Shown one piece after another: positions 1,708 to 24,622 of a DNA stretch of 36,305 nt. The stretch's first letter is position 1, and each line of letters starts with the position of its first letter. The position numbers were made by a program, and so were the translations under genes. Below the pieces are notes generated by a model, which worked only from the letters and a program-made list of their open reading frames with translations, ran no database searches and had not been told where the DNA came from. Origin of the DNA: an uncultured Lachnospiraceae bacterium (GTDB lineage Bacteria > Bacillota > Clostridia > Lachnospirales > Lachnospiraceae); contig CANOEC010000040.1 of NCBI GenBank assembly GCA_947564735.1, forward strand, positions 1 to 36,305, in the 5' to 3' direction.

Positions 1708-1795
1708 TGCTAATGTATTCGGAAAAGGTAGCTTCCTGAAAGAACATAAGAAACAAATATTTGCATCTATATAAATTAACATAAGGCTTTGATAT

Positions 1796-2192: not shown

Positions 2193-2239
2193 ATGCCCAC
2201 AGACACATGGAAGGAAAACAGAGAAAAGGAGATGAATTT

Positions 2240-4354: not shown

Positions 4355-4381
4355 GATGCGGATAGAGAGGGGATGATGAAG

Positions 4382-5140: not shown

Positions 5141-5180
5141 GTCTTGATGACCGGATCAAAGAATGGAGGATGGATGACAT

Positions 5181-6095: not shown

Positions 6096-6201
6096 ACCAT
6101 TGTTTATAACAGTAGGAAAGCGAGGCGTAAAATCTTTGCTTTTCTGCTGTTTATCTTTTAAAGGCAGTAATCCTTTATATAAAAAGTGGAGGGCAGATGG
6201 C

Positions 6202-6584: not shown

Positions 6585-6742
6585 TGATGAAATGGGTGCT
6601 CTTATTTCACAATTTGTTTCAGTAGCAGATTCCTATGAGTTATATATCATTGCATTATAAATATGTAGAGATATATTAAAAAGAGTTATAGGTTACATAT
6701 ATGAAACATGGAGCAGATCAGATCGGTAATGAGAAGAGGTGA

Positions 6743-7036
6743 ATGGAATTGAAGAAAGATGGATTATCGGAAATCATAGCAGAGCATAGAATGGGAAAAA
6801 AGCTTGATGAAGCTGTGAGAACTGATAATGACTATCAGGAAGCATTGGTGCAGCAACAGGAGGTTTTTGATAAACTGGATGTATTTGAACTTACTGTGAA
6901 CCAGAAAAAGGTGGTTGATCAAGTGATATCAGTAAATAATCATGTAGGGGCAATGTATGGTGAGGCAGCATACCGTGTTGGCATGGAGGATGGGATCAGA
7001 TTGCAGTCAGAGTTGCAGGAGATCATGGGATTTTGA
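6743..7036 (+). CDS. DUF6809-like small helical protein
   Basis: A 97-residue all-helical protein. The arrangement (DNDYQEALVQQQEVFDKLDVFELT, then a long helix and NNHVGAMYGEAAYRVGMEDG) matches small accessory proteins annotated as DUF6809-like on Firmicutes elements, of unknown role. An AGAGGTGA ribosome site precedes the ATG. A truncated relative lies on the opposite strand at 13480-13779, with the same DxxYQE...LD...L...GYV..QN.L..xYG pattern, showing that the window holds material from at least two related elements. Confidence 0.55.
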   Translation: MELKKDGLSEIIAEHRMGKKLDEAVRTDNDYQEALVQQQEVFDKLDVFELTVNQKKVVDQVISVNNHVGAMYGEAAYRVGMEDGIRLQSELQEIMGF

Positions 7037-7083
7037 GGTGGCGGTATGGAGAACGGTCGTTACGCTATACCATGCATAAGTGT

Positions 7084-7159
7084 GCGGGTGTTGGAGAGGT
7101 GGTATGGCGGTGAAAATACCACTCGTACCACTCGTACCACTTGATACCACCCGCTTTTT
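7084..7159 (+). terminator. long-stem terminator containing 9-bp tandem repeats
   Basis: GCGGGTG (7084-7090) pairs with CACCCGC (7148-7154) and is followed by five T. Inside, GGTGGTAT can pair with the ATACCAC copies. The loop carries tandem ACCACTCGT, ACCACTCGT, then the variant ACCACTTGAT (7119-7146). It ends the DUF6809-like transcript and precedes the PIN gene. The several ACCAC copies allow alternative pairings with the single GGTGG arm. Confidence 0.5.
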
Positions 7160-7266
7160 AATATAATAAATGAATGTGTATACTATCTTATGAAATGGAA
7201 TGATTGAATAAATGTCTGAAATAAAGTACAATGATAAAAGAAGGGAGCGGGAGGTGGATGTCATAG

Positions 7267-7704
7267 ATGATAATTTATCTGGATAACTGCTGTTATAACA
7301 GACCGTTTGATGACCAGACACAGGAGCGTATCCATTTGGAGAGTGAAGTCATTTTGACAGTCCTAAAAATGGGGCAGATGAAACAGGTGGTCATTGCCGG
7401 GAGTGAAATACTGAAACTGGAAATGAGTCGTATGCAGGATAATGATAAGAAGCAGAAGGTAATTGACTTATATCGTGTAGCAAGTATGCATATACCATAT
7501 ACTGAAAAGATCAAAAAGCGTTCTGAAGATATCATGTCAGTATCAAAGATACGGGCATTTGACAGTCTGCATATTGCATCGGCAGAAGAGGCTGGCGCAG
7601 ACATATTTTTGACAACTGATGACAGACTTGAAAAGATGGCGGAGAAATTAGAATTAGGAACAAGGGTTGTCAACCCGCTTCGGTTTGCATGGGAGGTGAT
7701 CTGA
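7267..7704 (+). CDS. PIN-domain ribonuclease (VapC-like toxin candidate)
   Basis: A 145-residue single-domain PIN protein, a metal-dependent RNase fold used by VapC-type toxins. The acidic residues are present: Asp6 in IYLDNCCYNRPFDD, Glu47 or Glu52 in SEILKLE, Asp99 in AFDSLHIASA and Asp118/119 in TTDDRL. The start is set by GGGAGGTGG nine bases before the ATG. The next gene begins immediately after its TGA within the same AGGAGG-like context, so the two are translationally coupled. Likely a toxin-antitoxin module with the toxin first; the target RNA cannot be told from sequence. Confidence 0.78.
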   Translation: MIIYLDNCCYNRPFDDQTQERIHLESEVILTVLKMGQMKQVVIAGSEILKLEMSRMQDNDKKQKVIDLYRVASMHIPYTEKIKKRSEDIMSVSKIRAFDSLHIASAEEAGADIFLTTDDRLEKMAEKLELGTRVVNPLRFAWEVI

Positions 7705-7908
7705 ATGTTGGACGTTAATCTGAGCAGTCCGATAGATGTGAGAAATGCAGGAATGAAAGCATTGCAGGAGGCGCTGGGACCTGTTGGAATGGTAAAATTT
7801 ATGCAGCAGTATGATATGGGATATGGGGATTATACCAAGGAAAAACAGGAACAGCCGGATATGAGTCTGGAAGAGATAGATATGCTGTTAAGAGATAAGA
7901 AACACTGA
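7705..7908 (+). CDS. small acidic partner of the PIN protein (antitoxin candidate)
   Basis: A 67-residue protein (NLSSPIDVRNAGMKALQEAL, then GPVGMVKFMQQYDMGYGDY and a C-terminal acidic helix MSLEEIDMLLRD). Small proteins of this type accompany PIN genes in clostridial genomes and are plausible antitoxins; no ribbon-helix-helix or AbrB fold is obvious. Its ATG abuts the PIN stop codon (TGAATG), with GGAGGTGAT just upstream inside the PIN gene. The order toxin-then-antitoxin is the reverse of classical vapBC. Confidence 0.55.
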   Translation: MLDVNLSSPIDVRNAGMKALQEALGPVGMVKFMQQYDMGYGDYTKEKQEQPDMSLEEIDMLLRDKKH

Positions 7909-8077
7909 TATAAAAAATTGATGTATAGTTGTAACTCTATGAAGGCAGTGGGATAACAACTTTATTGATGTTGACTGAAAAAGTGAAGGACAGAGCGATT
8001 CTGTTCTTCTTTTTTTGCATATTTTTTTTGCAATCAACTCCTACAGGAAAATAAAAAACTGTAAGGGAGTTGAAAAT

Positions 8078-10672
8078 ATGGATGCGATAAGAATAAGTTT
8101 AGACAAAAAAGAGTACCGTTCAAAACCGACCAACATGGATGCGGCTAAAATAAACAGCCGAATCGCGAAATGCATTGAAGAAATGGAAGATCCTGATGCT
8201 ATAAAAAGATTTGTGGAGAATGTTAGACAGCATGGATGTACGTTTGCCCCGGCAACATTCCGGAATGGGTCTAAAAAAACGGATGATTTCGAGCAGATGC
8301 AGATGCTCGTGCTGGATTTTGACGGTGACATATCCTATAAGGATGTGCGTGACAGGGCAGAGAAGTATGGACTGCCAGTTCTTTCTGTGTATGATACGTT
8401 ATCCAGTAAGGAACATGACAGGTTCAGGATCATGTTCCTAAATGATGTACCTATTACTGATAAAAGGGCAGCGAAGATATATAAAAACGCTTTAATGGAG
8501 ATATTTCCTGAAGCAGATCGTACTGACAGTGATATCTCTAAAATGTATTATGGTGGAAAAGAATTATTATATTTTGATCAATCTTTACCTACGATAGACA
8601 TGGAATCAGCAATAAGGAATATGACCTATTATTTGATGGACAAAGATGGTGCTACACATTATAAGAGAACTATAAGGAGATTTGCAAGGAAACATGGTAT
8701 CAGGCTGAATAGGAAAGGATTACTAGATATTTCTTCCATTGATGATGCAACAGAATCTATGAGTACATCTGATGATGGTAAAAACTCGCAAAAACCTATT
8801 ATCTTTTATAAAAGCAATGGTGATTTTTTACCAAGATCATGTTATCAGATTCATCTTGAAGATGAGTGTACCATAAGTTCTGTTGGGTTAAAACATTCTA
8901 ATGGACATAAATATGGTAATGCTAAAGTGTTAGAAAATATCCATTCCAAATGTCAGTTATATAGAGAATTTGAATCAGGAGCCAGAAGGTTACATCATGG
9001 AGAATTGTTTGGATTGTCAACAAATATCATTTATGTAGAGACAGGGATAAGAACATTTGAAGATATTTTGCTTAGGTATCCTGAATATTATGATACTTCA
9101 AAACGGAAACAATGGAATTTTTATTTAAAATACAATAGAGACAGTGATTATCATCCAAAATGGTGTAATAGATTCTGTCCCTATCGTGATAAATGTAATC
9201 ACGGGGACAATATCATATTGACTGTAAAGCCTGAACGCGGGACGATAGAGAAGGTGGCTAATTACAATGAAATATATTACCCGATAGAAGAAGTCCAGAA
9301 GAATCTGACTACAAATCTTGTGTCTGCTATAAATGCAGATGATACCAGATGGCACATAATCAAGGCGCAGACAGCCGCTGGAAAGACAGAGACATTCCTC
9401 AACCTCATGGAAAATTCTGGATTAAAATTTCTCATTGCCGTGCCGACAAACAAATTGAAACGGGATGTTGAGAGCAGGGCGGAAGAAAAAGGAATTGAGT
9501 TAATGGTAACGCCATCACTGGATGAGATCAAAGATGAGATACCCGATGATATCTGGGATGAAATAGAATTTTTACGGGAGATCGGACAGCACAAAAGAGT
9601 TCATTCCCTTATAAGAAGGATGGCAGAGGAAGAAAGGATAACATGTCTTAAAGAGTATCTGGATAAACAGAAAGAGTTTGAGGAGTATGAAGGGCATACG
9701 GTCACAACACATCGTAAGCTTCTGAATATGGATAAGAGGACACTGGAGAAATATGATGTAGTTATCATAGATGAGGATATCATTCTCAGCAGTATCATCC
9801 CGAACCAATGTGAGATATCCCTTTCAGTTCTTAAAAAAATAAGAAAGAAGGCTGGAAAGAAAAATGATTCAAACCATAAACTGTTAGTAAAAAAAATAAA
9901 GCAGTTGTTCCAAAAGATTGAAGAGGATACATTGTTTGAATTATCAGGGTTTGAATGGGAGGATGATGAAGACGAAGATCAAGAAAATCGAAATGAAGAT
10001 GTTGACGGTATATCAGCCCTCACTGACATACCGTCTTTTTGTCTGGCAGAACATTTCGTATATAGGAAAGCTGCCGAGGAGGAACATCTTCCAGAAGACA
10101 GTATTGTTTTTTTGAAACCCTATAGATTTAAGAATATCAAACATATCATGGTCTCGGCGACTGTCGATAAGGATATCTGTGAATACTGTTTTGAAAAACA
10201 GAATGTGAAATTCTATGAATGTAAACAGGCGCGGTACACAGGTACGCTTAACCAATACTATGATAAACCTATGAGCCGGAGCTTTATAGATAAAAATCCG
10301 GGCATTTTGGGGAAAATTTCAAAATGGTCTGGATTTGACAATATGATCACTTTCAAAAAATATGGCATTGGGGATATGTATTTCGGCAATGCTATTGGGT
10401 GCGATCATCTAAAGGGACAGAATATTGATGTGGTTGGCACGCCGTATCAGGTAGATTTTTTATATAAGCTGTTCCCGTTTTCGCTTGGGCTGGAGGTTGA
10501 TGGAGATGCGGTTATGAAGCCCTGTTTGATTACTCATAATGGCTATATCTTCAGATTCACTACTTATGATGACAAGGACGATGTGTTGAGGAAATTTCAT
10601 CTTTGGAAGATCGAAAGCGAACTGGAGCAGGCAGTAGGAAGGGGCAAGATGGGCATTCGCCCTAGGGGATAA
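8078..10672 (+). CDS. primase-helicase of a mobile element, C-terminus disrupted
   Basis: About 864 residues. The N-terminal part looks like an archaeo-eukaryotic-type primase: LVLDFDGD gives the acidic DxD, KEHDRFRIMFL the His-containing motif, and YYGGKELLYFD follows. A Cys-rich patch (WCNRFCPYRDKCNHG) comes next. The C-terminal half is a P-loop helicase with AQTAAGKTET (Lys436) and VVIIDED (Asp565-Asp567). It ends at ELEQAVGR followed by GKMGIRPRG, where helicases usually continue from a VGRAR-type motif VI, so the last segment seems lost or shifted at a run of four G near 10642. The ATG at 8078 has a GGGAG site; an upstream ATG at 8015 lacks one. Activity is doubtful. Confidence 0.72.
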   Translation: MDAIRISLDKKEYRSKPTNMDAAKINSRIAKCIEEMEDPDAIKRFVENVRQHGCTFAPATFRNGSKKTDDFEQMQMLVLDFDGDISYKDVRDRAEKYGLPVLSVYDTLSSKEHDRFRIMFLNDVPITDKRAAKIYKNALMEIFPEADRTDSDISKMYYGGKELLYFDQSLPTIDMESAIRNMTYYLMDKDGATHYKRTIRRFARKHGIRLNRKGLLDISSIDDATESMSTSDDGKNSQKPIIFYKSNGDFLPRSCYQIHLEDECTISSVGLKHSNGHKYGNAKVLENIHSKCQLYREFESGARRLHHGELFGLSTNIIYVETGIRTFEDILLRYPEYYDTSKRKQWNFYLKYNRDSDYHPKWCNRFCPYRDKCNHGDNIILTVKPERGTIEKVANYNEIYYPIEEVQKNLTTNLVSAINADDTRWHIIKAQTAAGKTETFLNLMENSGLKFLIAVPTNKLKRDVESRAEEKGIELMVTPSLDEIKDEIPDDIWDEIEFLREIGQHKRVHSLIRRMAEEERITCLKEYLDKQKEFEEYEGHTVTTHRKLLNMDKRTLEKYDVVIIDEDIILSSIIPNQCEISLSVLKKIRKKAGKKNDSNHKLLVKKIKQLFQKIEEDTLFELSGFEWEDDEDEDQENRNEDVDGISALTDIPSFCLAEHFVYRKAAEEEHLPEDSIVFLKPYRFKNIKHIMVSATVDKDICEYCFEKQNVKFYECKQARYTGTLNQYYDKPMSRSFIDKNPGILGKISKWSGFDNMITFKKYGIGDMYFGNAIGCDHLKGQNIDVVGTPYQVDFLYKLFPFSLGLEVDGDAVMKPCLITHNGYIFRFTTYDDKDDVLRKFHLWKIESELEQAVGRGKMGIRPRG

Positions 10673-15444: not shown

Positions 15445-15525
15445 TCAGTGGGTGCTTTTACTTTAGCCGGAACGGTATTCTGCCGAAGTAATAGGAAACA
15501 GCAGAAAGCGAAGGAGGCTCCGCTT

Positions 15526-15891
15526 ATGAAAATGCGTACAGAATATACCTGCCCTTTGGAGCTGGTGCATGACATGGTCAAAGGGAAATGGAAGCCGATC
15601 ATTTTATGGAGGCTGCGTTTAGGGGCTACATCTTTGGCGAAGCTGGAACGGGACATAGATGGCATCACACAGAAGATGCTGTTGGAGCAATTAAAGGAAC
15701 TGATGGACTATGGATTTGTGGAAAAGAAATCCTATGAGGGATATCCGCTCCGGGTGGAATATTCCCTAACAAATGATATGGGAATGAAGATACTGGAAGC
15801 GTTAAGGATCATGCAGCATATCGGGATCGACTATCTGAAAGCAAACGGCATGGAACATATATTGGAGGAAAAGGGAGTAGTCCCGGATTAG
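15526..15891 (+). CDS. HxlR-family transcriptional regulator
   Basis: A 121-residue winged-helix regulator: CPLELVHDMVKGKWKPIILW, then RLGATSLAKLERDIDGITQKML, then the wing GYPLRVEYSLT. The Cys near the N-terminus (residue 8) is the position used for redox or electrophile sensing in some HxlR members. GAAGGAGG precedes the ATG; the frame is open further upstream but lacks a site. A palindrome just after its stop and a PEBP remnant follow, so its likely targets are that lost gene and perhaps the divergent YdeI gene. Confidence 0.88.
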   Translation: MKMRTEYTCPLELVHDMVKGKWKPIILWRLRLGATSLAKLERDIDGITQKMLLEQLKELMDYGFVEKKSYEGYPLRVEYSLTNDMGMKILEALRIMQHIGIDYLKANGMEHILEEKGVVPD

Positions 15892-15911
15892 TACCCACGA
15901 AAAAGTGGGTA
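15892..15911. promoter_or_regulatory. palindrome, candidate HxlR operator
   Basis: TACCCAC-GAAAAA-GTGGGTA, seven-base perfect arms, starting at the base after the HxlR stop codon and 64 bp before the PEBP remnant. No T-run follows, which argues against a terminator. An operator for the adjacent regulator is the likely role. Confidence 0.5.
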
Positions 15912-15974
15912 ATTTACTGTCGGGGAGCCGTCGCATATAATATCATCAGAAAATAAAGATGGAGGTTATCAAAG

Positions 15975-16327
15975 ATGAATGTTACAAGCAGCGGTATCAT
16001 AGACGGGGTGATCCAGCCCAACTATGGCGGTCAGGGGACGCAGTTCAATGAAAACGGAATCCCTACTTGTTCCCTGCCGTTCACGGTGGAGGATGCACCA
16101 AAAGGAACGGTTAGACGAGCATACAAGGCGGGGAGCAGTCTGCGGAGCTTTCCTGCTATTACGGCGGGATGACCCCGCCCGATAAGCCGCACATATATGA
16201 ACTTCATGTGTATGCATTGGATAAGATGCTGGACTTGGATAAGGGCTTTTTGCTGAACGAGCTTTACCGTGAAATGGATGGGCATATCTTGGCGCAACAT
16301 ACACTGAAAGGAATTTATGAAAGTTAG
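15975..16327 (+). pseudogene. YbhB/YbcL-family (PEBP) gene with internal deletion
   Basis: The N-terminus (NVTSSGIIDGVIQPNYG, then NENGIPTCSLPFTVEDAPKG) is that of a bacterial Raf-kinase-inhibitor-like PEBP protein. After TV the frame becomes unrelated. A second frame then resumes the family C-terminus from about 16119: GGEQSAELSCYYGGMTPPD, IYELHVYALDKMLDLDKGF, ending HTLKGIYES. The middle, with the ligand-pocket segment of about 60 residues, is gone. The start has a GGAGG site. It is therefore a deletion-plus-frameshift remnant of the gene probably controlled by the adjacent HxlR protein. Confidence 0.8.
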
Positions 16328-16458
16328 CTGCCTGAAAGTCGGCGGGCGTACAATAAAAAAAATTTGATGTATTCATGTTCACTGATGACTTAAAACTGTT
16401 TATTATCGCATGATATTTTTCGATGAAGAGCCAAAAAAGAAACGAAATAAAATATGAT

Positions 16459-16485
16459 AAAAGGGCTGCTCGATGCAGCCCTTTT
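16459..16485. terminator. strong terminator before the van cluster
   Basis: AAAAGGGCTGC (16459-16469), five-base loop, GCAGCCCTTTT (16475-16485). A-tract and T-tract flank the stem, so it can work in both directions and insulates the van cluster from the PEBP remnant. Between 16328 and 16458 no gene is seen. Confidence 0.8.
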
Positions 16486-16531
16486 ATGCTTTCCATTTCC
16501 GAAGAAATAACTGTTTTGTGCCAGACCGAGA

Positions 16532-16560: not shown

Positions 16561-16630
16561 AAAACGCGGTGGGCGTACCCCGCCAGTGCCGGAAACAATG
16601 AATTTTGACAGTAGGGATGCAGGTGCTGAT

Positions 16631-17332
16631 ATGAAAGAGAAGATTTTGATTGTTGATGATGAAAAAGAAATAGCTGACTTGATAGAAATGTACCTTAAAA
16701 ATGACGGCTATTCGGTATATAAATGTTATAATGGCATGGATGCCTTGAAATGTATAGAAGAAACGGAGCTTGATCTGGCTATCATAGATATCATGCTGCC
16801 CGATATTGACGGGTTTCACATCTGCCAGAAGATCAGGGAAAAGTTCTACTATCCTGTGATCATGCTTACAGCGAAGGTGGCGGACGGGGACAAGATCATG
16901 GGTCTGACCATCGGTGCGGATGATTATATCACAAAGCCGTTTAACCCCTTAGAGGTAGCGGCAAGGGTGAAAACGCAGCTAAGACGGTATGTGCGCTACA
17001 ACAGCCTTGCAGGGAAAAAAGCGGATGAGGTCAGCGAATATGACATCAGGGGACTTCAGGTCAACAGGGATACCCACAAGTGCTATCTCTATGGAAAGGA
17101 ATTGAAGCTGACGCCGATTGAATTTGGGATTCTCTGGTATTTATGCGAACACCAGGGAATGGTTGTCCCGTCAGAGGAATTGTTTGAGGCGGTGTGGGGA
17201 GAAAAATACCTTGACAATAACAATACCGTCATGGCACATATAGGACGCCTGCGGGAGAAACTGAACGAATCTGCAAAGAAACCAAAATTTATCGTAAATG
17301 TGTGGGGAGTTGGATATACCATTGAAAAATAA
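16631..17332 (+). CDS. vanR: VanR-type response regulator
   Basis: A 233-residue OmpR-family regulator. The receiver domain has the acidic pair DDE (9-11), phosphoacceptor Asp53 in IIDIMLPDIDG, and Lys102 in YITKPFNP. The C-terminal winged helix includes LKLTPIEFGILWYLCEHQG and VWGEKYLDNNNTVMAHIGRLREKL. Sequence and context place it with VanG-type VanR proteins. It would bind the boxes at 18461-18484 once phosphorylated by VanS. The start at 16631 gives the usual length; upstream in-frame ATGs would add residues not found in the family. Its end overlaps vanS. Confidence 0.9.
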   Translation: MKEKILIVDDEKEIADLIEMYLKNDGYSVYKCYNGMDALKCIEETELDLAIIDIMLPDIDGFHICQKIREKFYYPVIMLTAKVADGDKIMGLTIGADDYITKPFNPLEVAARVKTQLRRYVRYNSLAGKKADEVSEYDIRGLQVNRDTHKCYLYGKELKLTPIEFGILWYLCEHQGMVVPSEELFEAVWGEKYLDNNNTVMAHIGRLREKLNESAKKPKFIVNVWGVGYTIEK

Positions 17333-18455
17333 AACACTTAACAGGACAGACAATTTCAGGCAGCTTAAAGCAAAGATTTTTTTACGCACCGTATGGATCG
17401 TCACGATTGCGGCCGGATGTATTTACCTGCTGTATTCCCTTCTTTTGAAAGGGCGGTTTGCGGACTGGGTCGTGGCGGCAAATCAAAAGCTCTTTGGACT
17501 GGATTATGCTCCCGCAAGGACTTTGTACCAGTGGACGTTCCGTAACCATATGGAACTGGTATTTGTGGCAGGGATGGTGCTGGTGTTTCTTATTGTGTTC
17601 CGCATCTATCTGAACTGGTTTGCACGGTATTTTATAGAGATCAACAGAGGGATTGATGAGATAGGGATGGAGGATTCGGGGGAGGTATCACTGCCGTCGG
17701 AACTTTCAGCTACCGAAAAGAAGATTAATGCAATAAAGCATAAAATTGAAAAACAGAAATTTGATATGAAGCTGGCGGAGCAGCAGAAAAATGATATGGT
17801 GATGTATCTGGCGCATGATCTGAAAACTCCCCTTGCCTCTGTGATTGGCTACCTGAACCTGCTGCGTGACGAGGGGCAGGTCTCAGAGGAACTTAGGCAG
17901 AAGTATCTTTCCGTTTCGCTGGATAAAGCAGAGCGTCTGGAAGACTTGATTAACGAGTTTTTTGAAATCGCAAAATTCAACCTATCGAATATTACACTCC
18001 AGTACAGCAGGATAAGCCTGACAAGGCTGCTTGAAATGCTCCTGTATGAATTCCAGCCAATACTGCATGAGAAGAATCTGAACTGTAACCTCGCAGTCCC
18101 GGAGGATATCATGTTAAGGTGCGATGCAGATAAAATCCAGCGTGTGTTTGACAACCTTCTGAAAAATGCGGTCATTTATAGTTATGAGGGCACGGAAATA
18201 GACATTGCTGTTACAAGGCAGGGGGAAAATGCCCGGATTACATTTACGAATCATGGGGATACCATTCCGGAGGAAAAACTGGAACGGATATTTGAGCAGT
18301 TCTACAGGCTTGATGCTTCCAGAAGCACAGAAAACGGCGGCGCCGGTCTGGGTCTTGCCATAGCAAAACAGATTGTTGAGCTTCATAAGGGGACGATCAC
18401 GGCAGCCAGTGAAAATGAGACGGTCACATTTACAGTCATATTACCGGTTTTGTAG
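17298..18455 (+). CDS. vanS: VanS-type sensor histidine kinase
   Basis: A 385-residue membrane kinase. Transmembrane segments at about 30-50 and 85-107 enclose a short outer loop; a linker leads to the HisKA motif LAHDLKTPLASVIGYLNLL with His173. The ATP-binding part has the N-box DNLLKNAVIYS and the G-box GGAGLGLAIAKQI. It should sense glycopeptide or cell-wall stress and phosphorylate VanR. The ATG at 17298 overlaps vanR by 35 bp; a TTG at 17322, reading LKNKTLNRT, is an alternative start nearer to what VanS proteins usually show. All catalytic motifs look intact. Confidence 0.9.
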   Translation: MCGELDIPLKNKTLNRTDNFRQLKAKIFLRTVWIVTIAAGCIYLLYSLLLKGRFADWVVAANQKLFGLDYAPARTLYQWTFRNHMELVFVAGMVLVFLIVFRIYLNWFARYFIEINRGIDEIGMEDSGEVSLPSELSATEKKINAIKHKIEKQKFDMKLAEQQKNDMVMYLAHDLKTPLASVIGYLNLLRDEGQVSEELRQKYLSVSLDKAERLEDLINEFFEIAKFNLSNITLQYSRISLTRLLEMLLYEFQPILHEKNLNCNLAVPEDIMLRCDADKIQRVFDNLLKNAVIYSYEGTEIDIAVTRQGENARITFTNHGDTIPEEKLERIFEQFYRLDASRSTENGGAGLGLAIAKQIVELHKGTITAASENETVTFTVILPVL

Positions 18456-18460
18456 GTAAA

Positions 18461-18492
18461 TCGTAAGAAATTCCGTATAAAATCAATAGAAT
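18461..18492 (+). promoter_or_regulatory. VanR-activated promoter with tandem 12-mer boxes
   Basis: TCGTAAGAAATT (18461-18472) is an exact match to the VanR-binding consensus TCGTANGAAATT known from enterococcal van systems. The adjoining 12-mer CCGTATAAAATC (18473-18484) matches it at most positions. A -10 box TAGAAT follows at 18487-18492, and there is no separate -35. This is the layout of a promoter driven by phosphorylated VanR, firing the vanW-to-racemase operon from about 18499. Confidence 0.78.
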
Positions 18493-18517
18493 CATTTATG
18501 TGGAAACAAATAAACGG

Positions 18518-18566
18518 CACTCCCGTTGTTGGTACAATCATAATGCCAATAACGGGAGTGTTTTTT
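18518..18566 (+). terminator. attenuator-like terminator in the vanW leader
   Basis: CACTCCCGTTGTTGG (18518-18532) pairs with CCAATAACGGGAGTG (18546-18560) through 15 positions with one G-U, and six T follow. It lies downstream of the VanR promoter and only 36 bp before the vanW start, so the operon transcript must pass through it. It may limit basal or readthrough expression. Confidence 0.8.
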
Positions 18567-18601
18567 GTTTGGTAAAAAAAGAGGACGGAGGGATCAACCG
18601 T

Positions 18602-19435
18602 ATGCCAAGGAAAAGAGTAACACAGGTATTTCCTTTTCTGCTTCCGCTCCGCAGATGGCAGAGAAAGAAATTTTTTTATTATAAAATGCGGAAAGACGGA
18701 TGCCGCTATGCGGCAAGGACAGATGGCAGCTTACTGCCGAACCTGGTATTTGAAACCTCAATACAAATGCTGAATGAAAACAGTGGATTTGACATGAAAT
18801 ACCAGAGGAACAAAGTACACAATCTTAAGCTGGCAGCCAGGACGTTAAACAGGGTTGTCATAGAGCATGGGGAAACCTTTTCTTTCTGGCAGCTTGTCCG
18901 GAGGGCAGACCGACGGGAAAAGTATAAGGACGGGCTGAACCTTGTGGATGGGAAGCCCGTGGCATCCTACGGTGGCGGACTGTGTATGCTGAGCGATATG
19001 CTGTTCTGGATGTTTCTGCATACGCCCCTGACCATAACGGAACGACACGGGCACGCAGTCAAAGCATTTCCGGGGGCGGATGAAGGACTGCCCTGCGGAA
19101 CGGATGCAACAGTGAGTGAAGGCTGGCTGGATCTGAAAGCCCGCAATGAAACGGACAATGTTTTCCAGATAGAGATCAGCTTTGATGATAAATATATGCA
19201 TGGGCGTATTTTCTCACAAAGCGCCGTGGAGCTTGCGTATTCCGTATTCAACCAGTCGGTCTCCTACAGGAAGCAGAGTGGAAAAATTTATCAGGCTGCA
19301 TCCGTCTGCCGGATGGAAACAGATAAAAATACCGGCAGGCAGACAGAAAGGGAGTTGTATATCAATCAGTGCGAGATAACATACAGGCTTCCGGAAGGAA
19401 CCAAAATAGAGGAAGGCGGTGTACAGGATGGATAA
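18602..19435 (+). CDS. vanW: VanW-family protein
   Basis: A 277-residue protein of the VanW family, found in vanB and vanG clusters; its role is not established. Family marks include KRVTQVFPFLLPLRRWQRK at the start, FDMKYQRNKVHNLKLAARTL, GETFSFWQLVRRADR, and the highly conserved GGGLCMLSDMLFWMFLHTPL with ERHGHAVK. A GGAGGG site precedes ATG 18602; the frame is open upstream into the terminator. It overlaps vanG by eight bases (ATGGATAA), which implies coupled translation. Confidence 0.9.
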   Translation: MPRKRVTQVFPFLLPLRRWQRKKFFYYKMRKDGCRYAARTDGSLLPNLVFETSIQMLNENSGFDMKYQRNKVHNLKLAARTLNRVVIEHGETFSFWQLVRRADRREKYKDGLNLVDGKPVASYGGGLCMLSDMLFWMFLHTPLTITERHGHAVKAFPGADEGLPCGTDATVSEGWLDLKARNETDNVFQIEISFDDKYMHGRIFSQSAVELAYSVFNQSVSYRKQSGKIYQAASVCRMETDKNTGRQTERELYINQCEITYRLPEGTKIEEGGVQDG

Positions 19436-20477
19436 GAAAAAGATAGCGGTTATTTTCGGGGGAAATTCCACGGAATATGAGGTGTCGCTGCAGTCGGCAT
19501 ACTCTGTCCTTAAAAATATCAATACAGAAAAATTTGATATTATCCCCATTGGGATCACCAGAGATGGGGACTGGTATCACTATACGGGAGAAACGGAGAA
19601 GATCTGTGAAGGCACATGGACTGAGGACAGTAAGAACCTGTTCCCCGTTGTGGTTTCACCAAGCCGTTCCGGGAAAGGGTTTTTAGAACTTGCCGAATAC
19701 AGCTACCGCACCATAAAAACAGACCTTGTATTTCCCGTACTGCACGGTAAGAACGGTGAGGACGGCACCCTGCAGGGATTGTTTGAACTGGCGGGTATCC
19801 CTGTTGTCGGCTGCGGCACGCTTTCGTCAGCGGTCTGCATGGATAAGGACAGGGCGCATAAGCTGGTCAGCCTTACGGGGATTGCTGTCCCGAGAACGGT
19901 AACCTTCCGGTATTCCGGCAGGGAGGCGGCTGTGGAGGAGATAGAAGCCGGGCTGGCGTATCCGCTTTTTGTAAAGCCGGTCCGTGCCGGTTCGTCTTTC
20001 GGGATAACAAGGATTACGGAAAAGGAGCAGCTTCATGCAGCCATAGAGCTGGCTTTTCAGTATGACGCGGAAGTTATCGTTGAGGAGGAAGTATGCGGGT
20101 TTGAAGTGGGCTGCGCCGTGCTTGGCAATGAGGCGCTGACTGTCGGAAGGGTAGATGAGATAGAACTGTCAGGGGGATTTTTTGATTACACAGAGAAGTA
20201 TACGCTGAAATCCTCAAAAATTTATATGCCCGCAAGGATCGATTCCGGAACAGAGAAGCGGATACAGGACGCAGCCGTGACGATATACCGGGCTTTGGGG
20301 TGTTCCGGCTTTGCGAGGGTGGACATGTTTTATACGCCATCCGGGGAAATCGTATTTAATGAGGTGAACACGATCCCCGGATTTACCTCCCACAGCAGGT
20401 ATCCCAATATGATGAAAGGGATCGGTCTGTCTTTCCCGGAAATGCTGGACAAACTGACAGGACTGTACATGGAGTGA
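19428..20477 (+). CDS. vanG: VanG-type D-alanine--D-serine ligase
   Basis: A 349-residue ATP-grasp ligase, the same length as enterococcal VanG and very close to it by recall (KIAVIFGGNSTEYEVSLQSA, FPVLHGKNGEDGTLQG, KPVRAGSSFGIT). It would make D-Ala-D-Ser for peptidoglycan ends with low vancomycin affinity. The omega-loop FFDYTEKYTLKSSKIYMPA and the ATP/Mg site FNEVNTIPGFTSHSRYP are intact. An upstream GTG at 19419 is in frame, but the ATG at 19428 fits the family. Nothing indicates decay, so the ligase is probably active; substrate choice is inferred from family. Confidence 0.92.
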   Translation: MDKKKIAVIFGGNSTEYEVSLQSAYSVLKNINTEKFDIIPIGITRDGDWYHYTGETEKICEGTWTEDSKNLFPVVVSPSRSGKGFLELAEYSYRTIKTDLVFPVLHGKNGEDGTLQGLFELAGIPVVGCGTLSSAVCMDKDRAHKLVSLTGIAVPRTVTFRYSGREAAVEEIEAGLAYPLFVKPVRAGSSFGITRITEKEQLHAAIELAFQYDAEVIVEEEVCGFEVGCAVLGNEALTVGRVDEIELSGGFFDYTEKYTLKSSKIYMPARIDSGTEKRIQDAAVTIYRALGCSGFARVDMFYTPSGEIVFNEVNTIPGFTSHSRYPNMMKGIGLSFPEMLDKLTGLYME

Positions 20478-20490
20478 TAAGGAGATTATT

Positions 20491-20964
20491 ATGAGCATCA
20501 GAAGAAGGATCATTGACTATTCAAGGGGGAACAACCTGCGCCATTTCTGGCGGCTTTTCAGACTGCAGCAAAGGAAAAAGGAAGGGCTTTTCCGGGATTT
20601 TTTTGCATTTATAATGAGCCGGTGCGCCCACCGGCACGGGGGATATATCGGTCCTGACGCGGTAATAAAGGACAATCCGACGCTTCCCCACGGTCTGCAT
20701 GGGATATTCATATCGCGGTATGCCAAGATTGGGGAAAACTGCTGGATATACCAGAACGTGACGATTGGCGAGGTGAACAGGAAAGCTCCTGCCATAGGAG
20801 ATAACTGCCTGATCGGGGCGGGCGCTGTCCTCATTGGGGGCATAAGGATTGGAAACAATGTGAAGATTGGAGCGGGGGCAGTGGTCAGCACAGATATTCC
20901 TGACGGCTGTACGGTTGTATCACAGCCGGCACGCATCATAGGGGAAAAGCAGGAAAATGGATAA
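20491..20964 (+). CDS. serine O-acetyltransferase-like hexapeptide protein
   Basis: A 157-residue left-handed beta-helix acyltransferase resembling short CysE-like serine acetyltransferases. Hexapeptide repeats run from about residue 70 (RYAKIGENCWIYQNVTIG, then AIGDNCLIGAGAVLIGGIRI, then VKIGAGAVVSTDIP). Two histidines lie just before the repeats (LPHGLHGIFIS), where the acceptor-activating His is expected. AAGGAG stands eight bases before the ATG, 14 bp after vanG, and its end overlaps the racemase gene, so it is firmly inside the operon. It is not a standard van gene. The acceptor could be serine, but other small acyl acceptors are possible. Confidence 0.75.
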   Translation: MSIRRRIIDYSRGNNLRHFWRLFRLQQRKKEGLFRDFFAFIMSRCAHRHGGYIGPDAVIKDNPTLPHGLHGIFISRYAKIGENCWIYQNVTIGEVNRKAPAIGDNCLIGAGAVLIGGIRIGNNVKIGAGAVVSTDIPDGCTVVSQPARIIGEKQENG

Positions 20965-22090
20965 AACAGTATTTTGGACAGACCGGGCATGGATTGAAAT
21001 AAATGTGGGGAACCTGCGCCATAACGTGGATGTTTTGAGAGAAGAGGTGCCGTCTGGATGCGAGCTGATGGCTGTCGTAAAGGCGCAGGCTTATGGTCAT
21101 GGGGCGGTTTTGACTGCCACACAGTTAAACCAGATGGGCGTGAGGGCGTTTGCCGTTGCCACGATTGAGGAAGGGATAGAATTGAGGGAAGGGGGCGTCA
21201 GCGGTGAGATACTTATTTTGGGATATACCGGCGTCAGCCGGGCCTTGGAACTGAAAGAATATGATTTGATGCAGACGCTGATCAGCCATGAATATGCAGA
21301 AGACTTAAATAGTCAGGGCATTGCAGTAAAAACGCATATTAAAGTGGATACAGGTATGCACAGGCTTGGAATTTCTGCCGGAGACCTTTCCGGGGTTCGG
21401 GATATCTTCTTAATGGAAAATCTGGAAGTCTGCGGGATGTTTACCCATCTGTGCTGTGCGGACAGCAGGCAGCCGGAGGATGTCAGGTATACCAAGGGCC
21501 AGATTGGCAGCTTTTATAAATTGGTGGATGATTTGAGAAACAGCGGTGTCGGCATACCAAAACTGCATATCCAGAGCAGTTACGGCCTTTTGAATTATCC
21601 CGGTCTCGCCTGCGATTATGTGCGGGCAGGCATAGCCCTGTATGGGGTTCCCAGCGCCCCGGAAGACGATTGTCTGCTAAAACCCGACCTGCGTCCAGTG
21701 CTTTCCCTGAAAAGCCGGATCGTGCTGATAAGGTCAGTAAAGAAAGGGGACAGCGTTGGATATGGCAGGAGCTTTACAGCAAGCCGGGATACCCGGATTG
21801 CCATACTGCCTGTGGGATATGGGGATGGCTTTCCAAGGAGCCTGTCAGACGGGAAAGGACATGTACTGGTTGGGCGGTACGTTGTCCCCGTTGCCGGGCG
21901 CATCTGTATGGATCAGCTTGCTGTGGATGTCACAGATGTGGAAGATGTGTCCGTGGGGGATATTGCAACACTTATAGGCGCTGAAGGATACCATGAACTT
22001 TCCGCACCGTCTGTAGCGGACAGTTCCGGCAGCATCAGCAATGAACTGCTGTGCAGGATGGGGGCAAGGCTGCCGGTTATTGCGAAATGA
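20957..22090 (+). CDS. vanT: VanT-like serine/alanine racemase, catalytic domain only
   Basis: A 377-residue PLP racemase of the alanine racemase fold, equal to the C-terminal half of VanT. Lys42 in AVVKAQAYGHG should bind PLP; HIKVDTGMHRLG, CDYVRAGIALYG and the C-terminal GRICMDQLAVDV are conserved. Near the end, ISNELLCRM carries Asn362 where Geobacillus alanine racemase has Tyr354; the same Asn replacement marks VanT serine racemases, so D-Ser supply is likely. The usual VanT N-terminal membrane (acyltransferase-like) domain is absent. It overlaps the preceding gene by eight bases. No vanXY follows. Confidence 0.85.
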   Translation: MDKTVFWTDRAWIEINVGNLRHNVDVLREEVPSGCELMAVVKAQAYGHGAVLTATQLNQMGVRAFAVATIEEGIELREGGVSGEILILGYTGVSRALELKEYDLMQTLISHEYAEDLNSQGIAVKTHIKVDTGMHRLGISAGDLSGVRDIFLMENLEVCGMFTHLCCADSRQPEDVRYTKGQIGSFYKLVDDLRNSGVGIPKLHIQSSYGLLNYPGLACDYVRAGIALYGVPSAPEDDCLLKPDLRPVLSLKSRIVLIRSVKKGDSVGYGRSFTASRDTRIAILPVGYGDGFPRSLSDGKGHVLVGRYVVPVAGRICMDQLAVDVTDVEDVSVGDIATLIGAEGYHELSAPSVADSSGSISNELLCRMGARLPVIAK

Positions 22091-22137
22091 ACCGCTGGGA
22101 ACATGGTAAATGTGTATTTTTATGTTTGCGCCGGGAG

Positions 22138-22503
22138 CTATTCCTTATACGGATTCACATAATCCGGGCAGAGGTATGTCTCGCTCCACGCCATCATCGT
22201 CTGCAGGACGGGGAGGAAGCTCTCCCCCAATTCGGTCAGCGAATACTCCACCTTTGGCGGGATTTCCTTGTAGATTTCCCGGTGGAGGAACCCATCGCTT
22301 TCCAGTTCCCGGAGCTGTTTTGTCAGCGTGGACTGCGTGATGCCGTCAAGGCGGCGCATCAGTTCCCCAAAACGCTGGACTTTGTAAAAGGACACATACC
22401 ATAAGATCAGGATTTTCCATTTGCCGCCAATCACGGACTGCAGCCTGCTCATGGGTTCGCAGCGGGCAATCACTTTTTTGTCATTGAATTTGCTTTCAGC
22501 CAT
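22138..22503 (-). CDS. HxlR-family regulator divergent from radical-SAM genes
   Basis: A 121-residue winged-helix regulator with ARCEPMSRLQSVIGGKWKIL, then FGELMRRLDGITQSTLTKQL and wing PPKVEYSLTELG. The Cys (residue 15) just before helix 1 is the usual sensing position of redox-type HxlR/YodB members. It converges on the racemase gene and diverges from the radical-SAM pair; the 178-bp gap holds a palindrome likely to be its operator. It is a different protein from the HxlR at 15526. Confidence 0.88.
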   Translation of the reverse strand: MAESKFNDKKVIARCEPMSRLQSVIGGKWKILILWYVSFYKVQRFGELMRRLDGITQSTLTKQLRELESDGFLHREIYKEIPPKVEYSLTELGESFLPVLQTMMAWSETYLCPDYVNPYKE

Positions 22504-22576
22504 TTCATTCCACTTCTTTCCCCATCAGTATATTCCAGTGGCGAGGGAAAATCAAGATACGGTTATTTTTGATAGA

Positions 22577-22596
22577 TAGTATGAAAAACAATACTA
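22577..22596. promoter_or_regulatory. candidate HxlR operator between divergent genes
   Basis: TAGTAT-GAAAAACA-ATACTA, six-base perfect arms with an eight-base spacer, 74 bp from the HxlR start and 86 bp from the radical-SAM start. It could control both directions. Confidence 0.45.
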
Positions 22597-22681
22597 CCAA
22601 CATAAAAAGACAGCACTTGATTTTATGGAGCATCGGAGGTAACTTAGTGCGAAAGAGGAAAGACGCAAGGAGGAATAAACG

Positions 22682-23581
22682 ATGCACTATACAGGAACTA
22701 TATGGAGACCGCCCTATGAGGCGTCTTCCCTGCTGCTGGAAGTTACGGCGGGCTGTACGCACCACAGATGCAAATTCTGTACGCTCTATGCTGACCTGCC
22801 ATTCCGGTTCAGGATGTCCCCGCTGGAGGACATAGAGGCTGATCTGAAGGAGGCGCAGGAGATGTACCGCCGCTTTACGGGGAGGGCGCCGTCCCGGACT
22901 TTCCTGACCGGGGCAAACCCGTTTGTTTTGAAGTATGACAGGCTGATGGAGATTGCGAGGCTGATACATAAATATTTTCCGGGGATGGAGACCATCGGCG
23001 GCTTTGCAAGGGTAACGGATATCACCTTGAAATCGGACAAAGAGCTGGAAGCCCTGCATGGAGCCGGATATGACGGGCTGACCATCGGCATGGAGACGGC
23101 GGATGATAAGGCGCTGCGATTCATGGAGAAAGGCTATCTTGCGGCTGATATTCTGGAGCAGTGCAGAAGGCTGGAACAGGCGGGCATACGTTACAGTTTT
23201 TTCTATCTGACGGGAATATCCGGCGCAGGGAACGGGGAGGCAGGCGCGGAGGCAACCGCCAATCTGTGCAACCGGCTCCATCCCATGCTGATTGGTGCCA
23301 ATATGCTGACGGTCTACCCGGATTCCAAGCTGTATGATGAAATCTGGAAAGGAAACTGGAAAGAGGAAAGCGAAACTGAGAAATACAGGGAAGTCCGGGC
23401 GTTAGTGGAGTATCTGGAAATCCCCACGGTTTTTGCGGCGCTTGGGGCATCCAATGCGTTTCAGATGCAGGGTGTGTTGCCGGAGGATAAGGGGAAACTG
23501 CTGGCTTTCCTTGATGACGTCATAAAAAATGTGGGCGAGGATGAACTGCGGCGTTACCGTGAGGGCGTCCATCATTTGTAG
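22682..23581 (+). CDS. radical SAM protein 1 (tandem pair)
   Basis: A 299-residue radical SAM enzyme. The cluster motif is CTHHRCKFC (Cys25, Cys30, Cys33), spaced C-x4-C-x2-C rather than the common C-x3-C-x2-C. The TIM-barrel is visible in TGANPFVL, IGGFARVTDI, GLTIGMETADDKAL and YSFFYLTGISG. The N-terminus HYTGTIWRPPYEA is shared with the next gene. No second cluster or B12 domain is seen. AAGGAGG lies before the ATG. Substrate unknown; regulation by the divergent HxlR protein is likely. Confidence 0.85.
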   Translation: MHYTGTIWRPPYEASSLLLEVTAGCTHHRCKFCTLYADLPFRFRMSPLEDIEADLKEAQEMYRRFTGRAPSRTFLTGANPFVLKYDRLMEIARLIHKYFPGMETIGGFARVTDITLKSDKELEALHGAGYDGLTIGMETADDKALRFMEKGYLAADILEQCRRLEQAGIRYSFFYLTGISGAGNGEAGAEATANLCNRLHPMLIGANMLTVYPDSKLYDEIWKGNWKEESETEKYREVRALVEYLEIPTVFAALGASNAFQMQGVLPEDKGKLLAFLDDVIKNVGEDELRRYREGVHHL

Positions 23582-23595
23582 GGAGGTGGCTTAAG

Positions 23596-24477
23596 ATGCA
23601 TTTTACTGGAAGAACATGGAGACCGCCTTATGAGGCGCATTCCGTCATCATTCAGGCAACCTCCGGCTGCACTTACCGCAAATGCCGTTTCTGCAGCCTT
23701 TATAAAGACGAGTGTTTCCGTATGTCTCCGATGGAGGAGTTCGAGGAAGACTTAGCCGAGATCAAGACTTACCAGCCCTATGCAAGGCGCATTTTCTGGA
23801 CGGGGGCGAACCCTTTCGCCATGAGCTATGAGAACCTGAAACTGCGGGCGCTCACGGTGAGGGATTACCTTATCAAGTGCCAGAGCATGGCCATGTTTGC
23901 AAGCATACGGGACATCAGGGACAAGGAAGTGTGGCAGCTTAAGAAGCTCCGGGCAATGGGGATAAACGGTCTGAGCATCGGGACGGAGAGCGGGGATGAT
24001 GATGTGCTTGCGCTGGCAGGCAAGGGATATACTGCTGATGACATTTTAGAACAGTGCCGGAAACTGGACGAGGCGGGAATCGAGTATTATTTCGTCTATA
24101 TGACCGGGCTTGCGGGGAAGGGCGGCGGATACCAGAATGCAGTAAACAGCGCAAAGCTGTTTGGCAGGTTAAATCCCTATTTTATTTCGGTGGACTCCCT
24201 TACGCTGTTCCCGGACACGGAGTTGTACCGCATGGAGCAGGAAGGGCGGTTCATCCCCGCCGGGGAGAAGGAGCGCCTGCAGGAGCTTCAGGTATTTATC
24301 AGAAATTTACAGATACGGACCCATCTGTTTGCCAACTCCTGTTCCAACTTCTATCCTGTCACGGCTTACCTGCCAAAGGAGAGAGATGCAGTGGTCAGTG
24401 AACTGCAGTTCGTCTGCGATACGGTGAGCGAGGAGGAGATGGCAGAATACCGCAGGAACCTGAAATCTTTGGGATAA
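23596..24477 (+). CDS. radical SAM protein 2 (paralogue of gene 1)
   Basis: A 293-residue radical SAM enzyme, 14 bp downstream of its paralogue. HFTGRTWRPPYEAHSVIIQ opens it and CTYRKCRFC gives Cys25, Cys30 and Cys33 at the same positions as in gene 1. Shared blocks include TGANPFAMSYENL, GLSIGTESGDDDVL, ADDILEQCRKLDEAGIEYYF and YMTGLAGKG. The two probably arose by duplication and may act as a pair or on related substrates. GGGAGG precedes the ATG. The substrate is not known. Confidence 0.85.
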   Translation: MHFTGRTWRPPYEAHSVIIQATSGCTYRKCRFCSLYKDECFRMSPMEEFEEDLAEIKTYQPYARRIFWTGANPFAMSYENLKLRALTVRDYLIKCQSMAMFASIRDIRDKEVWQLKKLRAMGINGLSIGTESGDDDVLALAGKGYTADDILEQCRKLDEAGIEYYFVYMTGLAGKGGGYQNAVNSAKLFGRLNPYFISVDSLTLFPDTELYRMEQEGRFIPAGEKERLQELQVFIRNLQIRTHLFANSCSNFYPVTAYLPKERDAVVSELQFVCDTVSEEEMAEYRRNLKSLG

Positions 24478-24622
24478 GGATAACCATGACAAAAGCAGCA
24501 AACGCTTCCTTTTCGTTCTGTTTTCAAGGAAATAAAACCGATGAATCTGAAAAATGAAGATATTTTACAAGACGCAGGAAAAAATAAGAGGTAAAATGGC
24601 TTTCGACAAGGAGGCAATCCAC

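What the first reader, a model, noticed from the sequence alone, without database searches (positions are those of the whole stretch)
16631..22090. VanG-type cluster with a non-standard gene set
The order is vanR-vanS-vanW-vanG-acetyltransferase-racemase. Known VanG clusters also carry vanXY (removal of D-Ala-D-Ala) and a membrane-bound VanT, and often vanY. Here no D,D-peptidase or carboxypeptidase is found, yet every remaining frame is intact and tightly coupled. Either resistance is partial or cryptic, or the hydrolase is supplied from elsewhere, or the operon serves another cell-wall purpose.
Basis: partly seen in the sequence, partly recalled or inferred. Interest (0 to 1): 0.72.

Follow-up and report, generated by a model that had tools for sequence, protein, structure and literature searches.

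The report
vanG cluster with swapped acyltransferase
A gut bacterium carries a vancomycin-response gene cluster that makes an altered cell-wall building block but lacks the usual enzyme that destroys the normal one, and in place of the usual membrane acyltransferase it carries an unrelated soluble one, which makes the puzzling role of that step testable.

Summary
Window 16631-22090 encodes intact vanR-vanS-vanW-vanG, a hexapeptide acetyltransferase (AcT) and a soluble serine racemase, behind a VanR-box/TACAAT promoter like P_YG of E. faecalis vanG. No VanX is in the assembly. Its only VanY/VanXY-family protein is VanY-like, of a family matched in 76 of 78 congeners.

The layout is not a one-off. 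AcT sits between vanG and a soluble racemase in 13 of 87 VanG loci compared, and 13 of 13 lack vanXY. Lack of adjacent vanXY is common: 44 of 84 scorable loci.

The new point is the slot: most relatives carry an AT3 membrane acyltransferase there (VanT's N-terminal half), and this subtype has a non-homologous acyltransferase instead. AcT keeps only the catalytic His of the serine-acetyltransferase active site, so acetylation of free serine is unlikely. Four AcT copies without the van racemase behind them weaken a van-only role.

Best reading: an inducible, selectively maintained D-Ala-D-Ser operon without precursor clean-up, giving weak or conditional protection. The tempting "VanG is the sole ligase" idea is not safe, because MurF is missing from the assembly too, which points to a gap.

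The parts
16457..16487 (+). intrinsic terminator-like hairpin upstream of vanR (probable left boundary of the transcription unit)
   Evidence: 13-pair stem in the terminator scan, which found 11 sites against 6.7 in shuffles
16631..17332 (+). vanR response regulator
   Evidence: NF033117 397 bits over cut-off 350; PF00072+PF00486
17298..18455 (+). vanS sensor kinase (start codon uncertain)
   Evidence: NF033091 405 bits over cut-off 400
18461..18472 (+). VanR box TCGTAAGAAATT; fits the VanRG motif (T/C)CGTANGAAA(T/A)T printed in PMC4405338
   Evidence: sequence; exact pattern in 25 of 59 loci with vanS; paper passage
18517..18561 (+). covarying terminator hairpin (T-run 18562-18567) that contains the -10 TACAAT (18533-18538) of the resistance promoter
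   Evidence: 35-locus alignment: 14 of 18 pairs with changes on both sides, 0 of 500 shuffles as high; TACAAT = P_YG -10 in PMC4405338
18602..19435 (+). vanW accessory gene (longest ORF from 18500)
   Evidence: NF033128 427 bits over cut-off 365, from residue 37 of the 18500 ORF
19428..20477 (+). vanG D-Ala-D-Ser ligase
   Evidence: NF000091 560 bits over cut-off 495; 628.6 bits over 347 aa to PDB 4fu0
20491..20964 (+). AcT, soluble hexapeptide acetyltransferase in the slot of VanT's AT3 domain
   Evidence: PF00132; nearest solved relatives are serine acetyltransferases, 68 bits; 12 further van-linked copies 70-95% identical to it
20957..22090 (+). vanTc, soluble serine racemase (catalytic half of VanT only)
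   Evidence: NF033131 543 bits over cut-off 460; 487 bits to PDB 4ecl serine racemase; Asn in SISNEL, where the own housekeeping Alr has Tyr

Best explanation
This is a VanR/VanS-controlled D-Ala-D-Ser operon of the VanG kind in a distinct, recurring layout, without a precursor-destroying VanXY. Vancomycin or wall stress is sensed by VanS. VanR activates a P_YG-like promoter between vanS and vanW. The soluble racemase makes D-Ser and VanG makes D-Ala-D-Ser, which competes with D-Ala-D-Ala for MurF. Because nothing in the operon destroys D-Ala-D-Ala, the wall should carry a mixture of termini, giving weak, conditional or cryptic protection rather than full resistance. AcT stands where the membrane AT3 acyltransferase half of VanT stands in most relatives, and probably does an acyl-transfer job for the operon; its acceptor is unknown. 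Shown by sequence: gene identities, order, promoter elements, absence of VanXY from the assembly, recurrence. Inferred: enzyme activities, induction, mixed termini, weak phenotype, the role of AcT.
For: Family models and PDB matches. The racemase has Asn where 71 of 71 VanT rows with a letter have Asn and the own Alr has Tyr (aligned by eye). VanR box and TACAAT fit the P_YG motif in print. Six of six congeneric genomes with this layout have only one PF02557 match over the cut-off, in a frame of 354-369 aa, while the vanXY genes of G029 and G036 were found by the same search. 13 of 13 AcT loci lack vanXY, and 18 fused-VanT loci lack it too. AcT differences to the four loci compared fall mostly at third codon positions, e.g. 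16/14/57 to L021, so the gene is under purifying selection. Human R. bromii strains, two of them with an 8-gene vanG cluster, were all inhibited by 1 ug/ml vancomycin (PMC5814915), and C. bolteae strains with incomplete vanG operons were susceptible (PMC5073890). PMC4405338 says vanG, vanXY and vanT are strictly required for resistance in E. faecalis.
Against: No phenotype, expression or precursor data. The assembly lacks MurF and Ddl, so a gene in a gap cannot be excluded. A VanY-like carboxypeptidase is present and could do part of the clean-up. AcT copies without the van racemase behind them in four genomes show that AcT is not tied to this pathway. The link AcT = no vanXY cannot be separated from shared ancestry: 1 independent pair on starred branches, 4 on all branches. 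The vanG-carrying susceptible strains in print have other gene sets (C. bolteae lacks the racemase), so they are only analogies.
Confidence: 0.55

Rival explanations
1. The clean-up is done from elsewhere: the VanY-like, probably membrane-anchored D,D-carboxypeptidase at C7 trims D-Ala from exposed pentapeptides, so the operon needs no VanXY.
For: One intact PF02557 protein of 354 aa with a hydrophobic N-terminal stretch, seen by eye; nearest NCBIfam model VanY-B/VanY-G, 151 bits, below its cut-off of 400. In C. difficile a non-operon D,D-carboxypeptidase (DacJ) acts synergistically with vanG expression (PMC11326576, passages).
Against: A PF02557 match occurs in 76 of 78 congeneric genomes, while only 15 of the 78 show a VanG-grade ligase hit over 200 bits, so it looks like a general wall enzyme. 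A surface enzyme would not hydrolyse the cytoplasmic dipeptide.
Confidence: 0.2
2. The operon is a decaying, non-functional remnant.
For: vanXY and the AT3 domain are missing; vanW is deleted in the nearest relative L019 and only a 110-aa vanW frame is left in L038; incomplete van operons in susceptible gut clostridia are in print.
Against: All six frames are intact here; vanR, vanS and a vanW frame are all present in 8 of 13 AcT loci, with two of the other five (L020, L030) cut by the contig end within 1 kb before vanG; AcT differences are concentrated at third codon positions; the promoter/terminator module is conserved.
Confidence: 0.13
3. VanG is the only D-Ala-D-X ligase of this organism, so there is no D-Ala-D-Ala to destroy and vanXY is superfluous.
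For: No other Ddl is in the assembly, with a VanG query or with a congeneric Ddl query, although 73 of 78 congeneric genomes show the housekeeping Ddl at about 159-176 bits.
Against: In congeners Ddl sits in a hydrolase-MurF-Ddl operon, and MurF, which is essential, is missing from the assembly too: the MurF query finds only MurD and MurE (the two named by eye). The pair is also missing together in G033, G056 and G080, so an assembly gap is likelier. Of the 11 AcT-layout genomes searched through loci, 10 have a second ligase-like match.
Confidence: 0.05
4. The operon mainly serves another wall function, with D-Ser incorporation or AcT-dependent acylation as its purpose and glycopeptide tolerance as a by-product.
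For: AcT and AT3 are both acyltransferases at the same place in the operon; one more distant AcT relative (L166, 41%) lies beside an AT3 gene and genes that look like glycosyltransferases by eye.
Against: VanR/VanS and the VanR box tie expression to the glycopeptide response as in E. faecalis vanG.
Confidence: 0.07

Closest known systems
vanG operon of Enterococcus faecalis BM4518 (vanURS, then vanY-W-G-XY-T; PMC4405338, passages)
   Same: VanR, VanS, VanW, VanG and a serine racemase; resistance promoter with VanR motif and -10 TACAAT
   Different: Here no vanU, vanY or vanXY in the cluster; the racemase is soluble and its AT3 half is replaced by AcT
vanG cluster of Clostridioides difficile (vanRS-G-XY-T)
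   Same: VanG ligase after vanR and vanS, 65-66% identical to the window VanG (loci L076, L084, L087)
   Different: C. difficile loci have vanXY and an AT3 domain, fused to the racemase in L076 and as a separate frame in L084 and L087 (PF01757 tested for L084)
NCBIfam NF033131, 'serine racemase VanT catalytic subunit'
   Same: The racemase scores 543 bits, cut-off 460: a catalytic VanT-G subunit is already a named family
   Different: The model covers the racemase only and says nothing of AcT or of the missing AT3 and VanXY partners
Serine O-acetyltransferase CysE/EpsC
   Same: Hexapeptide-repeat family; catalytic His kept
   Different: Of the seven NgSAT active-site residues named in PMC8786284 only the catalytic His is kept; N-terminal domain absent

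Membership tests
VanG-type D-Ala-D-Ser glycopeptide resistance cluster | VanG-type ligase | tested here: met
   NF000091 560 bits, cut-off 495; 4fu0 628.6 bits
VanG-type D-Ala-D-Ser glycopeptide resistance cluster | VanR/VanS with a VanR-type promoter before the resistance genes | tested here: met
   VanR box and TACAAT. Binding and induction themselves not tested
VanG-type D-Ala-D-Ser glycopeptide resistance cluster | VanXY (D,D-dipeptidase/carboxypeptidase) | tested here: not met
   none in the window; in the assembly PF01427 none, PF02557 only the VanY-like protein at C7. The assembly has at least one gap (MurF)
VanG-type D-Ala-D-Ser glycopeptide resistance cluster | membrane-bound VanT (AT3 domain plus racemase) | tested here: not met
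   racemase half only, 377 aa; AT3 slot filled by AcT
VanG-type D-Ala-D-Ser glycopeptide resistance cluster | resistance by D-Ala-D-Ser precursors | not testable with these tools
   needs culture and precursor analysis
VanT serine racemase, catalytic subunit | passes NF033131 | tested here: met
   543 bits, cut-off 460; the own Alr scores 341, below it
VanT serine racemase, catalytic subunit | Asn where alanine racemases have another residue | tested here: met
   Asn in window and in 71 of 71 VanT rows, Tyr in own Alr (by eye), Gln in alanine racemase 4y2w. That this decides serine against alanine (Asn696 of VanTG, Tyr354 of Alr) is recalled
Serine O-acetyltransferase (CysE) | active-site residues Asp96, Asp147, Asp161, His162, Glu170, Arg196, His197 (NgSAT numbering) | tested here: not met
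   Asp147, Asp161, Glu170, Arg196 and His197 align with Tyr52, Pro66, Arg76, Lys98 and Ala99; only His162 is kept (His67); Asp96 lies in the N-terminal domain that AcT lacks (alignment to 6wye, read by eye; residues from PMC8786284, passages)
Serine O-acetyltransferase (CysE) | passes the curated cut-off | tested here: not met
   EpsC 95 bits, cut-off 150; cysE 79, cut-off 211

The most novel reading that the evidence does not exclude
The AT3 membrane domain of VanT and the soluble AcT are non-homologous replacements for each other: both provide an acyl-transfer step that D-Ala-D-Ser operons use and that the usual model of VanG resistance leaves out (for instance acylation of a serine-bearing precursor or of the sugar backbone). 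The AT3 half of VanT would then be an acyltransferase in its own right and not merely a membrane anchor or serine transporter.
Probability: 0.25. Interest if true: 0.78.

Novelty: new variant of a known kind. Interest (0 to 1): 0.5.

Why it matters
The function of VanT's AT3 domain is an open question: PMC12423673 (passages) says it has not been considered, although vancomycin-resistance mutations in C. difficile fall in it. A natural lineage that has exchanged this membrane acyltransferase for an unrelated soluble one gives a direct way in: if AcT and AT3 modify the same thing, the missing step can be found with a small soluble enzyme. It also shows that vanG hits in gut Clostridia often lack the adjacent hydrolase that E. 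faecalis needs for resistance, so gene calls alone may overstate resistance.

Tried and rejected
Sole-ligase idea: pursued because no second Ddl appeared in the assembly, then dropped because MurF is missing with it and because 10 of 11 AcT-layout genomes searched through loci have another ligase-like match.

AcT as a van-only enzyme: rejected. Nine of 397 family genomes have a match at E 1e-25 or better; five, the window's included, are at 71% or more. In the other four no van racemase follows AcT; in L161, L162 and L163 no vanG is within the few kb read on either side, while L164 begins only 540 bases before AcT, so its upstream side is unknown. Whether these genomes have vanG elsewhere was not searched. 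The AcT tree mixes linked and stand-alone copies with little support.

AcT as serine acetyltransferase: rejected on active-site residues. Statistical link AcT = no vanXY: Fisher p = 9e-5 on 83 rows, but not testable once ancestry is allowed for.

AlphaFold model of AcT: mean pLDDT 52.8, pTM 0.47, too poor, so no fold search was made. Mobile copies: AcT in 51 plasmid records, all under 60% identity, and three distant viral contigs; the cassette in 5 phage records, at most 14% of the query. Rfam: no match over gathering score in the window.

The first hairpin scan found a box in 25 and a hairpin in 27 of 59 loci with vanS; a looser scan found 39 of 59; one search aligned 35 of those 39 (L061, L067, L089 and L109 dropped by eye as badly anchored). 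One search covered 49 of 50 loci sent (L038 not held), and those 50 of 80 were picked by hand. In one search the row meant as the own Alr was a wrong frame; the right one was read.
Full report
What is there. Window 16631-22090 holds six intact frames in one direction: vanR, vanS, vanW, vanG, a small hexapeptide acetyltransferase (AcT) and a soluble racemase. VanR, VanS, VanW, VanG and the racemase pass curated NCBIfam cut-offs. VanG matches the structure 4fu0 with 628.6 bits, twice the next chain, a VanA. The racemase matches the serine racemase structure 4ecl with 487 bits, against 234 for the best alanine racemase. At the C-terminal SISNEL motif it has Asn, as have 71 of 71 VanT rows with a letter there; the organism's own Alr has Tyr (FNYEF, aligned by eye) and the alanine racemase 4y2w has Gln. 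That this is the serine-versus-alanine position (Asn696 of VanTG, Tyr354 of Alr) is recalled, not read here.

No hydrolase. The assembly (4.52 Mb, 102 contigs, 99.49% complete) has no PF01427 (VanX) match and one PF02557 (VanY) match, a 354-aa protein with a hydrophobic stretch near its N-terminus, beside a gene that looks like queuine tRNA-ribosyltransferase (both by eye). It is closest to VanY-B/VanY-G at 151 bits, below the cut-off of 400. A PF02557 match occurs in 76 of 78 congeneric genomes. The six with AcT next to vanG (G000, G043, G047, G051, G062, G064) have only one over the cut-off each, in frames of 354-369 aa; G043 has a second one of 21.8 bits, below it. The vanXY genes of G029 and G036 were found by the same search.

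A limit worth stating. The assembly also lacks any Ddl besides VanG, while 73 of 78 congeneric genomes show the housekeeping Ddl at about 159-176 bits; the other four are G013 (104.9 bits), G033, G056 and G064. That looked like an elegant reason for having no VanXY. But in the ten congeneric loci read, Ddl was found, and in the two mapped (L099, L102) it follows a hydrolase-like gene and MurF. MurF is missing from this assembly as well: the query finds only MurD and MurE (named by eye). MurF is essential, so a gap is the likelier cause. G033, G056 and G080 show the same joint absence. Of 11 AcT-layout genomes searched through loci, 10 have another ligase-like match besides VanG; the exception, G080, is apparently the same genome as G064, which is 67% complete. 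I therefore do not claim a D-Ala-D-Ala-free organism.

The layout recurs. In 87 distinct loci scored, vanXY follows vanG in 40, is absent in 44 and cannot be scored in 3. The next slot: 50 fused AT3-racemase; 4 AT3 and racemase as separate frames; 3 AT3 cut by the contig end; 13 AcT before a soluble racemase; 6 a soluble racemase with neither; 7 no racemase within 3 kb; 4 not scorable. All 13 AcT loci lack vanXY. Of the 13, 8 have vanR, vanS and vanW (one, L038, with only a 110-aa vanW frame), L019 lacks vanW, L020 and L030 are cut by the contig end, and L077 and L090 show no vanR or vanS frame within 5.5 kb or the shorter stretch held. On the quick VanG tree (36 of 84 inner branches weak) the AcT label needs 4 changes and the vanXY label 17, so vanXY seems to be gained or lost often. 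The association of AcT with lack of vanXY (Fisher p = 9e-5, 83 rows) cannot be separated from ancestry: only 1 independent pair on starred branches.

The slot. In separate-gene relatives the gene before the racemase is an AT3 acyltransferase (PF01757; L109, L116, L084), and it is the N-terminal half of fused VanT (L086). In this subtype AcT has that place. AcT belongs to a different family, the hexapeptide acyltransferases. Thus one acyltransferase family stands in for another at the same operon position. PMC12423673 (passages) argues that the AT3 domain of VanT is a transmembrane acyltransferase whose function has not been considered, and notes that vancomycin-resistance mutations fall in it, citing PMC11326576 (passages of that paper). 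The exchange seen here fits that view. It does not prove it: six loci do without either, and AcT has no membrane part while AT3 acts across the membrane.

What AcT is. Its nearest solved relatives are serine acetyltransferases (68 bits). Aligned to N. gonorrhoeae SAT (6wye, read by eye), whose active-site residues are listed in PMC8786284 (passages), AcT keeps the catalytic His (His67) but has Tyr52, Pro66, Arg76, Lys98 and Ala99 for Asp147, Asp161, Glu170, Arg196 and His197, and it lacks the N-terminal domain with Asp96. The 12 other van-linked copies are 70-95% identical to the window copy, and all 13 keep His67. Differences to the four compared are mostly at third codon positions. The genome has a separate, CysE-sized hexapeptide protein (C8:40657, 38% identical). 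In the genus, copies at 73% or more occur only in the six AcT-layout genomes; the next-best match by score is 42% identical. In the wider family, four genomes of 397 besides the window's carry AcT at 71-77%: L161 behind a two-component system, L164 overlapping a MATE pump gene, L162 and L163 alone; none is followed by the racemase, and L164 is cut 540 bases before AcT. Linked and stand-alone copies mix on a weakly supported tree. So AcT is a small enzyme family that is sometimes part of vanG operons, not a gene confined to them. An AlphaFold model was too poor to use.

Control region. Between vanS and vanW lies a VanR box, TCGTAAGAAATT at 18461-18472, and TACAAT at 18533-18538. Both fit the P_YG promoter of E. 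faecalis vanG, for which PMC4405338 (passages) gives the motif (T/C)CGTANGAAA(T/A)T and the -10 TACAAT. In the window and many relatives TACAAT, or a near match, lies in a strong hairpin followed by a T-run (18517-18561 and 18562-18567). An exact box is found in 25 of 59 loci with vanS and a hairpin in 27, or 39 with a looser scan. On 35 of these loci the 18-pair hairpin forms in 96.5% of cells, with changes on both sides at 14 of 18 pairs, 0 of 500 shuffles as high; sliding the partners gives 37-54%. Relatedness can inflate the shuffle test; the sliding control argues against that. A plausible design is that the vanRS transcript ends at this terminator while the resistance transcript starts inside it and so escapes it. 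The start site here is inferred.

Surroundings. With L021, L024, L026 and L034 the DNA similarity (hits over 200 bases, E up to 1e-10) covers about 16.53-22.09 kb and stops there, except for one stretch at 393-826 with L021 and one at 15450-16322 with L026; in L040 the right limit is the contig end. L019, from a genome whose Ddl-MurF locus differs from this genus, shares 16588-24501 at 90-92% but lacks vanW. The window's left side carries LPD28, DUF932, YqaJ-recombinase, Rad52-like and DUF5688 genes and its right end a serine recombinase. This is consistent with lateral movement; mis-binning of the metagenome assembly L019 is possible.

How it works. Best reading: vancomycin sensed by VanS, VanR drives vanW-vanG-AcT-vanTc, D-Ser and D-Ala-D-Ser are made, and the wall becomes mixed because D-Ala-D-Ala is not destroyed. 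In E. faecalis VanG, VanXY and VanT are all strictly required for resistance (PMC4405338, passages). All four human R. bromii strains, two of them with an 8-gene vanG cluster, were fully inhibited by 1 ug/ml vancomycin (PMC5814915, passages), and C. bolteae strains with incomplete vanG operons, lacking the racemase, were susceptible (PMC5073890, passages). On the other side, C. acidurici with vanW, vanG, vanXY and vanT is credited with moderate or weak resistance (PMC3519856, passages). So weak, conditional or cryptic protection is the most likely phenotype, with possible help from the VanY-like carboxypeptidase.

Is it known. Searches: vanG with vanXY and serine acetyltransferase (0 papers); vanG, Lachnospiraceae, vanXY, D-Ala-D-Ser (1 listed); vanG/vanXY/acetyltransferase/Clostridiales/vanW/gene cluster (12 of 48 listed); phrases for missing vanXY or vanG-like operons (20 of 201 listed, none with the phrases for missing vanXY); further vanG searches. 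No description of this layout appears in the listings or in the passages I read; no paper was read whole. The library holds only open-licence papers, so another paper could describe it; one on C. difficile VanG that I sought is not held. Incomplete vanG operons as such are known. I rate it a new variant of a known kind.

Noticed in passing
window 18517-18567, and 34 other vanG loci (alignment A2): The -10 box TACAAT of the vanG resistance promoter lies inside a strongly covarying terminator hairpin at the end of vanRS, so terminator and promoter overlap. PMC4405338 describes the promoter; 'stem-loop' and 'hairpin' do not occur in its main text.
   Followed up: partly
L019 9799-9846 versus window 18568-19280: The nearest relative (90% DNA identity) lacks vanW, apparently by a deletion of about 0.7 kb, while the rest of the cluster is kept, so vanW seems dispensable there.
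   Followed up: partly
G000, G033, G056, G080 (whole assemblies): murF and the housekeeping ddl are missing together from four assemblies, one of them rated 99.5% complete: likely a shared assembly blind spot of the murF-ddl operon.
   Followed up: partly
window 35254-36261 (-), and 18-10672 (+): Serine recombinase at the right end (PF07508, DUF4368), and LPD28, DUF932, YqaJ recombinase, Rad52-like and DUF5688 genes on the left: the cluster lies between mobile-element-type genes.
   Followed up: no
window 22682-23581 and 23596-24477: Two neighbouring radical SAM genes of about 295 aa downstream of the cluster, shared with L019 at 92% DNA identity.
   Followed up: no
L164:541-2410: An AcT relative without van genes downstream overlaps a MATE efflux gene.
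   Followed up: no
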